From positions 1 through 35,741 of the IMG/VR virus record IMGVR_UViG_3300042923_000268: DNA of 35,741 nt. One strand, given 5' to 3'. A program made the translations under genes and the position numbers. Positions 20,337 to 25,571 of this stretch are shown here, one piece after another. The DNA comes from a virus. The notes below the pieces were generated by a model. It made no database searches. It had not been told where the DNA came from and worked only from the letters and a program-made list of their open reading frames with translations. Position 1 is the first letter of the stretch. Every line of letters begins with the position of its first letter.

Positions 20337-20363
20337 AAAAAAAGGGAATCCCGAAGGATCCCC
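20337..20363 (-). terminator. Terminator of the Agr-like operon
   Basis: On the minus strand GGGGATCC-TTCG-GGATTCCC forms an eight-pair hairpin with a stable TTCG loop and is followed by seven T. It begins at the base after the LytTR stop codon, so the five-gene operon has a defined end. Confidence 0.88.
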
Positions 20364-20756
20364 TCATCCAAAACAGTATTCATTAGCCGTTCGCGATAAG
20401 TAGGCCGATACGTAATCTAGATTCAAATGAGATATTCGACATTTCTTTGATTCTTTCGTCACTACATCTTCGAAGTACCCCTCATGCTTAAAAGCATTCA
20501 TACTTCTTAACCTCTCGAGATTAACTGCGTTCGTGCGATCGAGCAACGGGAAATCATACCCGGTAGCCTTTAAGCTTTGTTGCCAGTAGATTAACGTACC
20601 AGGGGCGAAATACTGGTTTACCAGAGTGTGGAACACTACCATCTTACAGCAGTTATCGAATTCGAAACAAAGAATGTCCGGTACGTAAACCTTTGCAAGA
20701 GGTTCCAGTATCTCTTTATTCTTAATGACCGGGCTTGTTGAAAAATAGAGATCCAA
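20364..20756 (-). CDS. Receiver-less LytTR DNA-binding regulator
   Basis: This 130-residue protein reads as a lone LytTR domain, the DNA-binding domain of AgrA. VYVPDILCFEFD (23-34), the central HTLVNQYFAPGTL, and FPLLDRTNAVNLERL (69-83) follow the AgrA order, where the last phrase corresponds to FFRCHNSFVVNRHNI, and RISHLNLDYV fits the final strand. The phosphorylation-receiving domain of AgrA is missing. The start is TTG behind AAGGGGGAAGGAAC. It is the last gene of the operon after agrD. Stand-alone LytTR proteins paired with membrane proteins are known in streptococci (HdrRM, BrsRM). I assign the family from pattern, not alignment. Confidence 0.72.
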   Translation of the reverse strand: MDLYFSTSPVIKNKEILEPLAKVYVPDILCFEFDNCCKMVVFHTLVNQYFAPGTLIYWQQSLKATGYDFPLLDRTNAVNLERLRSMNAFKHEGYFEDVVTKESKKCRISHLNLDYVSAYLSRTANEYCFG

Positions 20757-20768
20757 GTTCCTTCCCCC

Positions 20769-20897
20769 TTACTTAAGTAGTTCCTTAGGGGCTTCTGGTT
20801 GGCCGATAAAGAACAAACTAGCTGGTGTAACAAAGATTACAGCTAAACTGGCTAGAGCGGATGCAAGTACGGAAGTTGCGCGAGTTTTGATTGTCAT
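20769..20897 (-). CDS. agrD: AgrD-like autoinducing peptide precursor with Ser ring residue
   Basis: A 42-residue precursor not longer than a typical AgrD. It has a basic N-terminus (MTIKTR), an amphipathic helix rich in Ala, Val and Leu (8-24), the ring segment SLFFI (27-31) and the tail GQPEAPKELLK (32-42). Aligned with S. aureus AgrD-I, S27 takes the place of ring Cys28, and the nine residues after the ring (GQPEAPKEL) match DEVEVPKEL at E, P, K, E and L. Ser instead of Cys predicts a lactone, as in S. intermedius and GBAP. AAGGAGG, overlapping the agrB stop region, precedes the ATG. Confidence 0.88.
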   Translation of the reverse strand: MTIKTRATSVLASALASLAVIFVTPASLFFIGQPEAPKELLK

Positions 20898-20905
20898 GTT
20901 GATAT

Positions 20906-21421
20906 TCACCTCCTTCCATGAATTAGACTGATGCTCTGGATTAAAAACGCCACTGCCACTACTGATGAACTAATTGCCAAATTAGATAAGACGATTAATA
21001 AAGATAAGTATTTAAGTAACGGGTAGTATTTTTCCGATATCCTCGACTGATTTTTTATATCTGTCGGTGCGAATACCAGGACTAGCGCAGCGGCCAGTAA
21101 AGTAACGATCCATGTGACGTCGCTCGAGAATGATATGTAGGAAATCCCTGTTAGCCCAAGCACGCTAATCAATACGCATAGATCAGTCGACGGGAGATGG
21201 TACCCTCCAGATAGCTGTCTCAGTACCGCAAAGGAAATGATCGCCGTTAAGGCCTCCCATTCTCTCCCGGTAAGCACCGACACAAGCATGGTGATAACCA
21301 CAACTCCTGATACGTTCAACAGCGCCGCAATTGAGAAAGAAAGAACTGCTGTACTTGCGGGATGATCAGGGACGACAGTTTTAATTCTTAAAGCTATTCT
21401 TAGAGCCAAACTTTGTATCAT
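20906..21421 (-). CDS. agrB: AgrB-like peptide-processing membrane protease
   Basis: A 171-residue integral membrane cysteine protease. The catalytic pair is H75 and C82 in RQLSGGYHLPSTDLC, with the same seven-residue spacing as H77 and C84 in S. aureus AgrB. The remainder is four or more hydrophobic segments plus a basic loop near 120-135, as in the family. It should cut the AgrD-like precursor encoded 8 bases downstream and close the ring while the peptide crosses the membrane. Its start overlaps the end of the sensor-like gene by 41 bases, showing coupled translation. Confidence 0.93.
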   Translation of the reverse strand: MIQSLALRIALRIKTVVPDHPASTAVLSFSIAALLNVSGVVVITMLVSVLTGREWEALTAIISFAVLRQLSGGYHLPSTDLCVLISVLGLTGISYISFSSDVTWIVTLLAAALVLVFAPTDIKNQSRISEKYYPLLKYLSLLIVLSNLAISSSVVAVAFLIQSISLIHGRR

Positions 21422-22049
21422 TGCTCTCCAATTCCTTTTTCATGGTGTAGGTGAAGAAAAATAGGACTGCGAAGAATAAGGTTAGAAAGATAATGAACAA
21501 AACTTTGTAATAGAGAAGAACTCCGAAGGAAACCGTCATAATGGCTATTAAGCTCATTATCAATATTCTCTCTGCTCTAAACCTAAGTTTTTCCACGAAG
21601 TCATAAGCGAGACCTAAACCGAATCGATAGAGCACAAATGCAAGGGTGAATAACAATACGCCGGTAATGGTCTGTAATAGATATCCCATATACGGGTCGC
21701 TCTCAGCTACCTCTAGCGACAGACTTCCGAATGAAAGAACGGTCACTAGCAACTGTACGATGATCGAAACTGCGTACCCCACAATGCTGATAATAAAGGA
21801 CCATAAAAGCGGTACTTTTACGAATACTGCAACGAAGAAGACAAGGATCAATAAGTTTGCGATTGGGGATAGCATGGCGAGATCTAATTCATCCCTCAAA
21901 ATGAAGCTGATTAAATTCATAACGAATCCGACAGCTAAAGCCGGCCAGACGTGGTCCACCAGTCTATACCTAAAGATGGAAAGCATTATAGCCATAGCTG
22001 CCAGCACTTCAATCATCGAGAATAACATGAACTTCGAAAACTCCAACAT
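21381..22049 (-). CDS. AgrC-like membrane sensor without kinase domain
   Basis: A 222-residue polytopic membrane protein with about six or seven hydrophobic segments (starting LEFSKFMLFSMIEVLAAMAI and ending near FLTLFFAVLFFFTYTM). The layout matches the sensor half of AgrC: transmembrane helices followed by the first residues of the linker (TMKKELESND). It then stops, so no histidine or ATP-binding kinase part exists in this frame or in the following 40 bases. The ATG at 22049 has GGGGGAG eight bases upstream. It may bind the peptide made by the neighbouring genes, or block host AgrC. The family call rests on topology and neighbours. Confidence 0.65.
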   Translation of the reverse strand: MLEFSKFMLFSMIEVLAAMAIMLSIFRYRLVDHVWPALAVGFVMNLISFILRDELDLAMLSPIANLLILVFFVAVFVKVPLLWSFIISIVGYAVSIIVQLLVTVLSFGSLSLEVAESDPYMGYLLQTITGVLLFTLAFVLYRFGLGLAYDFVEKLRFRAERILIMSLIAIMTVSFGVLLYYKVLFIIFLTLFFAVLFFFTYTMKKELESNDTKFGSKNSFKN

Positions 22050-22054
22050 TTGAT

Positions 22055-22360
22055 TTACTCCCCCGATTCTTTTTGCCGATCGCGCCACTCATCAATGTGT
22101 TGCATGTATTCCTCGATATCACTCCGGAGCCATATCGGAAACTTTCCAGCGTACAGTACAGGATCCGGAAAAAAGCTAGTCCTTCTCTTGTGAGTCATAT
22201 TCTTCGGATCTATCCCCAGCAACTCCGCTACGTCCTGATTGCTAAGTAGTTTGATACTCTTCGCTAACTCATACGCTTTGATCAATTCTTTAATTTTAAG
22301 ACCGTCATCCCCGCCTATTCTATCCGCCAGTAAGCGATATTGTTCTAATTCAATATTCAA
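22055..22360 (-). CDS. Helix-turn-helix regulator (MerR/AlpA-excisionase-like)
   Basis: A 101-residue protein. A helical N-terminus (IELEQYRLLADRIGGDDGL) is followed by a winged helix-turn-helix at about 38-90: LSNQDVAELLGIDPKNMTHK, then FPDPV, WLRSDIEEYM, which is the layout of MerR-like AlpA/excisionase domains. The start is TTG eight bases after AGGAGG. It is the first gene after the palindromic promoter, so it may control its own operon. It overlaps nothing but is six bases from the sensor-like gene. It could equally be an excisionase, since attP is 3 kb away. Confidence 0.72.
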   Translation of the reverse strand: MNIELEQYRLLADRIGGDDGLKIKELIKAYELAKSIKLLSNQDVAELLGIDPKNMTHKRRTSFFPDPVLYAGKFPIWLRSDIEEYMQHIDEWRDRQKESGE

Positions 22361-22381: not shown

Positions 22382-22421
22382 AATATAAGACCTTAACTTA
22401 TATAAGTCAAGGTCTTATATT
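22382..22421 (-). promoter_or_regulatory. Promoter inside a 40-bp palindrome, Agr-like operon
   Basis: Arms at 22382-22394 and 22409-22421 are perfect 13-bp complements. The 14-base centre holds a perfect 12-bp palindrome, ACTTATATAAGT (22396-22407). Only one central base pair breaks symmetry. On the minus strand TTGACT (22405-22410) and TATATT (22382-22387) are exactly 17 bases apart, so the dyad covers the entire core promoter. A dimeric regulator bound here would block transcription. Confidence 0.75.
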
Positions 22422-22787: not shown

Positions 22788-22836
22788 GATAAGAACATTT
22801 GTTCCGATTATAGTTCAAATGTTCTTATCTAGGCAA
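22788..22836 (-). promoter_or_regulatory. SOS-box promoter with 14-bp inverted repeat
   Basis: GAACATTTGTTC (22793-22804) fits the Bacillota LexA box GAAC-N4-GTTC. It lies within one arm of a perfect 14-bp inverted repeat (22788-22801 and 22816-22829). On the minus strand TATAAT (22807-22812) sits in the spacer, with TTGCCT (22831-22836) 18 bases upstream as a poor -35. The LexA site overlaps the start point, so LexA would repress until DNA damage. Confidence 0.68.
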
Positions 22837-24108: not shown

Positions 24109-25500
24109 TTAATAATACCTATTATAAATAAGATCCATAGACATTATATTCAGAACAACCATCAATAAGGCAGAAGTGCTATAAACGTAATTCTTATATT
24201 TCTCTGGTACGATATATCGAAACCCAAATAATAAAACTAAGTTTATTGGAACTAGTGAAGTTAGTAAGTACCTTCCCTGTAGCATGAAATTATGGTACTC
24301 CTTGAAATAAGTGATTTCAACTGTGTAGAGAAAGACTAGATTTCCTAGCGCGAATATAAGACTAAATAACGCAATCTTGAAATTCTCTTTCCTTCGTAAT
24401 ATTCCGTAAACAGCTCCCCCTATCCCAACCAACATAATCCATGAAAGAACGCTATATATCGTATCCGAATTAAACCGAGTATCAGACCAGCCGAATTTTG
24501 CCCAATACTCTCGAGTCCACACATTGAAAAATCTTTCTTTACCAGCGTCATTGAATAACGCGTTTTGAAAGTACCAATTCAACCCTTGTGTTGGATCACC
24601 TTGCGGCTGCATTGCAACTCCGCCAGAGATGGAACCATAATGCGAGTAACTAAATATCGCCCATGGTAGATATAAGACGACCATCGGCCCCGCAACAAAT
24701 GCGGCAGATTTTAATGCCTTCACCAATCCGTATTTCTTGATGAAGAATATGAGAGCGAATAACAAGATAAATCCGCAAACATAGAACATTTGTGGTTTAA
24801 TAAGAAGTCCAAAACCCGCAACGAAACCACCAATGATAAGCGTTTTATTAGTGAATGCCTTTGTTATAATGAGCAACCATAGCAAAAGCGCAATTGATAT
24901 AGTATCCATCATAATATCGTTATTCACTGCCGCCCCTACCATAGAGAAGACAGGATGCATTCCGGTTGTGATTGCCAGCGCGCCCGCTAAGAAAATCGAC
25001 TTGGGTTCTATTGATTTGCCAATAAAATACGCCAACGTTACCGCAACTAAACTCAACAAAACAGAGAATATCCTCACCGCATATAGCCGGAACACAATGG
25101 TATCATCGTACCCCAGTTTATAAACGAGAGATGCAGGAAAATAGTATCCTGGGGGATAGCCTGCGGCAAGGCTACTGCCGGTTGATACGCGCATTTCGGG
25201 ACTATTATTTTTAGGATCCGAAAGCAAATGATAGAAATTTTGATGTATAAAATACTTTGATTCCGGTTTAAATACGATATCATTCATCCGTACTGCCATC
25301 GTAAATAAGTTTAATTCATGCGAATACCCAGGCTCGGACGTTTGAACCGGAACTTTATTTTCCTCACCCATATACTGAACATAAGCAAAATGGACATGTT
25401 CATCGGGGTTTTGCAAAGGCGGGATAATATAAACCCAAACAAGTCCTTTAATTAGCATTATGGTTAGTATGATCCATAGAAATAGATACTTTTTTAACAA
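24109..25500 (-). CDS. DUF2142-like GT-C membrane glycosyltransferase
   Basis: A 463-residue integral membrane protein with about 10 to 12 hydrophobic helices. The first outside loop holds the acidic PPLQNPDEHVHFAYVQ motif of GT-C fold enzymes, and later loops contain GYPPGYYFPA and YWAKFGWSDTRFN. The overall plan matches DUF2142, which uses polyprenyl-phosphate sugars. Codon use looks more AT-rich than in the surrounding tail and lysis genes, so it may be a recently gained moron. The TTG at 25500 has GGGGG six bases upstream. It probably modifies the host surface in lysogens, blocking further phages or altering serotype. Confidence 0.78.
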   Translation of the reverse strand: MLKKYLFLWIILTIMLIKGLVWVYIIPPLQNPDEHVHFAYVQYMGEENKVPVQTSEPGYSHELNLFTMAVRMNDIVFKPESKYFIHQNFYHLLSDPKNNSPEMRVSTGSSLAAGYPPGYYFPASLVYKLGYDDTIVFRLYAVRIFSVLLSLVAVTLAYFIGKSIEPKSIFLAGALAITTGMHPVFSMVGAAVNNDIMMDTISIALLLWLLIITKAFTNKTLIIGGFVAGFGLLIKPQMFYVCGFILLFALIFFIKKYGLVKALKSAAFVAGPMVVLYLPWAIFSYSHYGSISGGVAMQPQGDPTQGLNWYFQNALFNDAGKERFFNVWTREYWAKFGWSDTRFNSDTIYSVLSWIMLVGIGGAVYGILRRKENFKIALFSLIFALGNLVFLYTVEITYFKEYHNFMLQGRYLLTSLVPINLVLLFGFRYIVPEKYKNYVYSTSALLMVVLNIMSMDLIYNRYY

Positions 25501-25571
25501 GAGAATCCCCCTTTTCGACACCCCCAAATATTACTCGATTTTCGTAGGATTACACAATCCAGATTGTTACA

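What the first reader, a model, noticed from the sequence alone, without database searches (positions are those of the whole stretch)
21381..22049. AgrC-like receptor that ends where the kinase should begin
The polytopic segment stops right after a short linker (TMKKELESND). No kinase sequence is found in any frame downstream, because agrB begins 41 bases earlier. It is therefore not a simple frameshift relic of a full kinase gene. It might act as a direct membrane anchor for a DNA-binding partner, or pair with and silence the host AgrC.
Basis: partly seen in the sequence, partly recalled or inferred. Interest (0 to 1): 0.72.

Follow-up and report, generated by a model that had tools for sequence, protein, structure and literature searches.

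The report
Kinase-less AgrC receptor with LytTR partner
A bacterial virus carries a small signalling kit whose receptor lacks the enzyme half that such receptors normally use; the same stripped-down kit, mostly with a small DNA-binding protein beside it, proves to be the commonest form of this signalling system in the virus's host family, so the receptor probably controls the DNA-binding protein directly.

Summary
Window 22049-21381(-) encodes a complete 222-aa, seven-helix membrane protein with no kinase; agrB starts 41 bases before its end, and no HATPase lies anywhere in the window. It is not a relic. The same four-gene order (kinase-less C, AgrB, AgrD, small LytTR protein) occurs in Brevibacillus and Paenibacillus phages and in host chromosomes. 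The C profile hits 249 of 394 Paenibacillaceae genomes, and no listed open frame there is kinase-sized. Among 73 sampled AgrB loci, 65 have kinase-less C, 47 of these with a LytTR hit; only 5 are plain AgrB plus kinase. C is an AgrC sensor homologue: its family profile hits the N-terminal sensors of AgrB-adjacent GHKL kinases (E to 2.5e-8), with no hits on reversed sequences. The LytTR protein matches AgrA's DNA-binding domain (Foldseek 1e-5, Z 12.6) and has no receiver domain. Best reading: the peptide signal passes from receptor to LytTR regulator without phosphorylation, as in LytTR Regulatory Systems; that step is inferred, not shown. Silencing of a host AgrC is unlikely. A 2014 paper noted that the Brevibacillus phage proteins lack HATPase; I found no earlier mention of the LytTR partner, the host distribution or the homology.

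The parts
22382..22421 (.). Palindrome of two 20-nt arms (95% complementary) covering a promoter-like site on the minus strand (TTGACT-17-TATATT, 22410-22382); likely promoter/operator of the operon
   Evidence: promoter-like matches in the region are no more frequent than in shuffles; the palindrome is clear
22055..22360 (-). 101-aa HTH/excisionase-like DNA-binding protein (TTG start), first gene of the operon in this phage; not conserved as a cassette member
   Evidence: phrog_4745 E 4.5e-6; Pfam HTH_17 weak
21381..22049 (-). Kinase-less AgrC-type receptor (C), 222 aa, 7 predicted TM helices, N-out/C-in inferred from the charges
20906..21421 (-). AgrB peptidase, 171 aa; H75 and C82 are invariant in the aligned family (catalytic pair by the spacing known for AgrB)
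   Evidence: (PF04647 65 bits, cut-off 23)
20769..20909 (-). AgrD pro-peptide, 46 aa (GTG start); predicted signal core ending SLFFI, ring residue serine, then GQPEAPKELLK
   Evidence: (TIGR04223 34.7 bits, cut-off 19)
20364..20756 (-). Stand-alone LytTR DNA-binding protein, 130 aa (TTG start), no receiver domain
   Evidence: (9 of 9 aligned members hit PF04397)
20342..20365 (-). Intrinsic-terminator-like hairpin (10 pairs, T run) at the end of the LytTR gene, closing the operon

Best explanation
The protein is the membrane-embedded peptide-sensing half of an AgrC receptor, complete without a kinase. It belongs to a four-gene quorum-sensing cassette C-AgrB-AgrD-LytTR. AgrB cuts and cyclises AgrD and the peptide leaves the cell (inferred from the families). 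The peptide binds C from outside (inferred). C has no kinase and the LytTR protein has no receiver domain, so the signal should pass by direct contact: the conserved cytoplasmic face of C holds or releases the LytTR regulator, as the membrane inhibitors of LytTR Regulatory Systems are thought to do, and LytTR then switches promoters, probably including that of the cassette (inferred). Shown here: gene content and order, absence of a kinase, homology of C to AgrC sensors, the predicted LytTR fold, conservation across phages and hosts. Not shown: peptide binding, the C-LytTR contact, its sign, and the target genes.
For: C family profile hits AgrB-adjacent kinases at their N-terminal sensor, E 2.5e-8 to 1e-4 for eight of them, and among 817 ORFs nothing but AgrB-adjacent receptors; reversed ORFs give no hit; those tested carry SPOB_a and HATPase. 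65 of 73 AgrB loci from 59 Paenibacillaceae genomes have kinase-less C, 47 of them with a LytTR hit. The LytTR model's best PDB matches are AgrA LytTR domains (Foldseek E 1e-5, TM 0.77-0.79; Z 12.6, rmsd 2.8, 100 residues), with no room for a receiver domain. Information content of C is highest in the cytoplasmic loops (2.5, 2.5, 1.8) and at the charged end of the last helix, low in the outer loops (1.1, 1.1, 0.7). Distance matrices: C-LytTR rho 0.55, C-AgrB 0.51, AgrB-LytTR 0.43; AgrB-LytTR falls to 0.20 given C. One operon with a terminator after LytTR. Precedent for a LytTR regulator controlled by a membrane protein, distinct from two-component systems: PMC6193735.
Against: 18 of the 65 C loci have no LytTR hit nearby (of these one has a weak Pfam LytTR hit and two look like LytTR by eye). 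No direct repeats of the LytTR type above chance upstream of most cassettes, and none shared. Four loci have a GHKL kinase nearby, which could act with C. C was not shown to be related to known LRS membrane proteins. The mirror-tree correlation is not corrected for species phylogeny. No interaction was tested.
Confidence: 0.62

Rival explanations
1. C is a peptide sink or immunity/insulation protein: it binds the cell's own peptide or helps AgrB in the membrane, and LytTR acts independently or under another signal.
For: Some cassettes have C-AgrB-AgrD without LytTR, even in tandem (L146, L149, L153); Davies and Emery have two C genes.
Against: Conserved parts of C face the cytoplasm, odd for a pure sink; LytTR follows AgrD in most cassettes and C-LytTR distances correlate at least as well as C-AgrB.
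Confidence: 0.15
2. C works through a separate GHKL kinase (split AgrC), by forming mixed dimers with a kinase encoded elsewhere in the host.
For: Loci L136, L140 and L154 have a GHKL kinase of about 450 aa next to the cassette, divergently transcribed, whose own sensor resembles C weakly.
Against: No such kinase is seen next to most other cassettes; the partner LytTR has no receiver domain to accept a phosphate.
Confidence: 0.1
3. C is a dominant-negative decoy that pairs with the host AgrC and silences it.
For: AgrC kinases are dimers (established knowledge); phage genes often interfere with host signalling.
Against: Only 5 of 73 sampled AgrB loci are plain AgrB plus kinase; the kinase-less form is the host's own common form; it travels with its own AgrB, AgrD and LytTR.
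Confidence: 0.05
4. C is an unrelated transporter, for example of the peptide, and not a receptor.
For: Polytopic, next to AgrB; no PDB match to a receptor of this kind.
Against: Profile homology to AgrC sensors with correct register and specificity; no transporter match at E <= 0.001.
Confidence: 0.04

Closest known systems
Phage agr cassettes of Brevibacillus phages Davies, Emery, Abouo and Paenibacillus phages Harrison/Paisley
   Same: Same gene order, protein lengths and kinase-less C; the lack of a HATPase domain was noted in one sentence by Hargreaves et al. 2014 for Davies, Emery and Abouo (PMC3901668)
   Different: The passages read of that paper name no LytTR partner and no host distribution, and say only 'may be homologs of AgrC'. 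The window's C is nested among chromosomal ones and not with these phages
Canonical agr (AgrB, AgrD, AgrC kinase, AgrA)
   Same: AgrB, AgrD, an AgrC-type sensor domain and a LytTR output domain
   Different: No histidine kinase, no receiver domain; ring residue usually serine or, in a subset, apparently neither serine nor cysteine
LytTR Regulatory Systems (HdrRM, BrsRM; PMC6193735)
   Same: Receiver-less LytTR regulator encoded with a polytopic membrane protein; no phosphorylation parts
   Different: Membrane gene comes first, its family is the AgrC sensor, and a dedicated peptide signal is encoded in the same operon; the known LRS signals are unidentified
phiCDHM1 agr3 (PMC3901668)
   Same: agr genes in a temperate phage
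   Different: phiCDHM1 AgrC keeps its HATPase domain (453 aa) and the phage has no response regulator

Membership tests
AgrC sensor domain | Sequence homology to the N-terminal membrane domain of AgrB-adjacent kinases | tested here: met
   Family profile, E 2.5e-8 to 1e-4 for eight such kinases, N-terminal in every case, none on reversed ORFs
AgrC (full receptor kinase) | Phospho-acceptor helix and HATPase domain | tested here: not met
   222 aa; no HATPase in the window; no kinase-sized open frame among the listed relatives
AgrC (function) | Binds the cognate cyclic peptide | not testable with these tools
   Needs an experiment
AgrB | PF04647 above cut-off, His and Cys seven residues apart | tested here: met
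   65 bits against 23; H75 and C82 invariant
AgrD | TIGR04223 above cut-off | tested here: met
   34.7 bits against 19
LytTR DNA-binding domain | PF04397 match and LytTR fold | tested here: met
   All 9 aligned members hit, best E 6.1e-7, though the window member alone is below cut-off; top structural matches are AgrA LytTR
LytTR Regulatory System | Receiver-less LytTR regulator encoded with a membrane protein | tested here: met
LytTR Regulatory System | Two-gene order with regulator first, membrane inhibitor second | tested here: not met
   Membrane gene is first and LytTR last in the window and in most cassettes; the LRS paper describes the reversed order only for 'LRS-like' Bacteroides operons
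LytTR Regulatory System | Membrane protein inhibits the regulator; autoregulation through direct repeats | tested here: inconclusive
   No shared direct repeats upstream of the cassettes; inhibition not testable here

The most novel reading that the evidence does not exclude
Phosphorylation-free agr signalling, in which an AgrC-derived receptor controls a stand-alone LytTR regulator by contact, is the ordinary form of agr in Paenibacillaceae, and temperate phages have taken it up several times to sense lysogen or host density; a subset signals with peptides that lack the usual Cys/Ser ring residue.
Probability: 0.4. Interest if true: 0.82.

Novelty: new variant of a known kind. Interest (0 to 1): 0.62.

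Why it matters
agr is the textbook Gram-positive quorum-sensing two-component system. Here a whole bacterial family and its phages appear to run it without the kinase, joining agr to the little-known LytTR Regulatory Systems and giving those a candidate dedicated signal. That makes a direct test possible: does a peptide-bound membrane receptor control a transcription factor by contact alone? For phages it would be a further peptide communication route beside arbitrium.

Tried and rejected
Single-protein searches for C in IMG/VR and phage records gave nothing; the family was reached through AgrB. Foldseek and VIA-align of C against PDB gave only partial helix-bundle matches (best E 1.1; best Z 5.5 over 68 residues), not interpreted; two uncharacterised phage proteins in BFVD had probability 0.98-0.99 but E 0.3. 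PDB sequence search of C and of LytTR gave no meaningful hit. hhalign of C against Paenibacillaceae AgrC sensors alone was only suggestive (46% probability, P 2e-4 for the divergent kinases, 16% for canonical ones; AgrB control 0.5%); wider Bacilli kinases gave the clear result. DUF3021 genes exist in 15 of 59 genomes, but I did not compare them with C. Direct repeats upstream of C: absent or near the number expected from shuffles in most cassettes, a few loci with unshared repeats above it. A conserved block of about 110 bp precedes C in the P. polymyxa group but gave no clear LytTR site. Frameshift relic rejected: the short form is intact in the relatives. Silencing of host AgrC: judged unlikely.

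Full report
What is there. The ORF at 22049-21381 on the minus strand is intact and 222 codons long. It lies in a tight operon: a 101-aa HTH protein (22360-22055), the membrane protein C, AgrB (21421-20906), AgrD (20909-20769) and a 130-aa LytTR protein (20756-20364), closed by a terminator-like hairpin at 20365-20342. A 40-bp palindrome covering a promoter-like site precedes it. AgrB scores 65 bits on PF04647 and AgrD 34.7 bits on TIGR04223. The record has no HATPase domain.

It is not a relic. C matches phrog_15604, a family of 222 positions, over its full length. The order C-AgrB-AgrD-LytTR with the same lengths is present in phages Abouo, Davies, Emery and Paisley, in eight further viral contigs, in L022 and in Paenibacillus chromosomes or prophages. 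Davies and Emery carry two C genes in tandem.

How common. The C profile hits 249 of 394 Paenibacillaceae genomes; in the listed hits the open frame is mostly 200-260 aa and never above 329. A second survey started from AgrB: 59 genomes, from which 73 AgrB loci of about 7 kb were fetched. Of these, 65 have kinase-less C; 47 of the 65 have a LytTR hit; 5 have AgrB with a GHKL kinase and no C; 4 of the 65 have a kinase nearby as well; 3 have neither. Some of the 18 without a LytTR hit have a diverged LytTR-like gene (L190 by weak Pfam hit, L135 and L194 by eye only). One C open frame of 425 aa (L188) is only an upstream extension of the frame: the C match lies at its C-terminal end.

Is C an AgrC sensor? 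A profile from the C sequences found so far (167 hits before removal of duplicates) was run against 817 ORFs from 40 AgrB loci, chosen for high AgrB score in a class-wide sample of Bacilli and thus mostly canonical. The hits were AgrB-adjacent kinases and one degenerate relative, always in their N-terminal part: L247 2.5e-8, L272 6.5e-8, L250 9.5e-8, L255 1.5e-7, L276 3.6e-7, L275 5.5e-7, L284 1.5e-5, L273 1.2e-4; reversed ORFs gave none. Those tested carry SPOB_a and HATPase domains. Bias corrections were large, so the specificity and the control carry more weight than the E-values. L283 encodes a 421-aa protein next to AgrB with a C-like sensor (2.1e-15) and no recognisable HATPase, a possible intermediate. 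In a tree of sensors and C proteins, all C stand apart from 13-14 kinase sensors (split support 0.93-0.94); two divergent C group with the canonical Paenibacillaceae kinases on long branches. The window's C lies among chromosomal ones, and Brevibacillus-phage and Harrison-type C lie elsewhere, which suggests several captures by phages. This tree is a quick one and its deep branches are weak.

Structure. AlphaFold2 (pLDDT 80) gives seven membrane helices, the last running to residue 218; no PDB fold matches well. Charges suggest N-out, C-in. Across 94 C proteins the cytoplasmic loops are the best conserved segments and the outer loops among the least, the pattern expected of a receptor with variable ligands and a constant inner partner. 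The LytTR model (pLDDT 81) has AgrA LytTR structures as best matches (Foldseek E 1e-5, TM 0.77-0.79; Z 12.6, 100 residues, rmsd 2.8) and no receiver domain.

Mechanism. The kit has a signal (AgrD), its maker (AgrB), an AgrC-type sensor and a LytTR output, but neither kinase nor receiver. Direct control of LytTR by C is the simplest route. LytTR Regulatory Systems give the precedent: a receiver-less LytTR regulator held inactive by a membrane protein (PMC6193735). Distances of C and LytTR correlate at least as well as those of C and AgrB, and the AgrB-LytTR correlation falls to 0.20 once C is held constant; this is not corrected for species history. I found no shared LytTR-type direct repeats upstream of the cassettes, so targets are unknown. 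The sign of control (release or activation) is open.

What is known. Hargreaves et al. 2014 wrote that Davies, Emery and Abouo have AgrB, AgrD and one or two membrane proteins that may be AgrC homologues although they lack the HATPase domain (PMC3901668). The kinase-less fact for phages is therefore known. Seven searches of the paper library showed no report of the LytTR partner, the host-wide distribution or the homology; that library misses many subscription papers. As a membership statement: C is an AgrC sensor domain but not an AgrC kinase; the system works like an LRS but differs in gene order and in having its own signal.

Setting. The window's structural genes are 82-87% identical in parts to a prophage in genome G021. 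The sampled stretches beside that prophage, and four other loci that carry a related integrase (69-77% identical), show no C, AgrB or LytTR hit, so the cassette looks like optional cargo between the lysis and integration modules.

Noticed in passing
L010 5513-5638, L011 5519-5644, L012 5516-5641, L022 5156-5281, and chromosomal cassettes such as L149, L171, L193: About a quarter of AgrD peptides in these cassettes (21 of 85 tabulated, by a simple motif rule) have no Cys or Ser at the usual ring position (fifth from the cut) but a Lys at the fourth, e.g. AKVSI|GNPVAPKEL. They might form a lysine lactam or stay linear.
   Followed up: partly
L283 2288-3550: AgrB-adjacent 421-aa protein with a C-like sensor and a C-terminal half with no recognised kinase domain, a possible intermediate between AgrC and kinase-less C.
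   Followed up: partly
L012 3604-4260 and 4340-5005; L013 3607-4269 and 4340-5005: Two C genes in tandem before one AgrB-AgrD-LytTR in phages Davies and Emery.
   Followed up: no
L010 5648-6001 (PAISLEY_41): The LytTR gene is annotated 'dipeptidyl aminopeptidase', and the matching phrog_15081 is called peptidase; both are probably misannotations of a LytTR protein.
   Followed up: yes
L136, L140, L154: A GHKL kinase of about 450 aa is divergently encoded next to the C-AgrB-AgrD-LytTR cassette; its sensor aligns in register with C but weakly.
   Followed up: partly
window 22788-22829: Perfect 14-nt inverted repeat (GATAAGAACATTTG, 14-nt spacer) just upstream of the 111-aa ORF at 22775-22440, a likely operator.
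   Followed up: no
window 24109-25527: 472-aa polytopic protein beside the lysis genes, looking by eye like a membrane glycosyltransferase; unusual cargo for a phage.
   Followed up: no
L022 3554-3664; L010 3196-3354: Short hydrophobic ORFs (e.g. MSVYEALMVMFAFGTFIIALIGLFVKMTKK) near the cassette resemble small type I toxin peptides of Bacillus prophages; judged by eye only.
   Followed up: no
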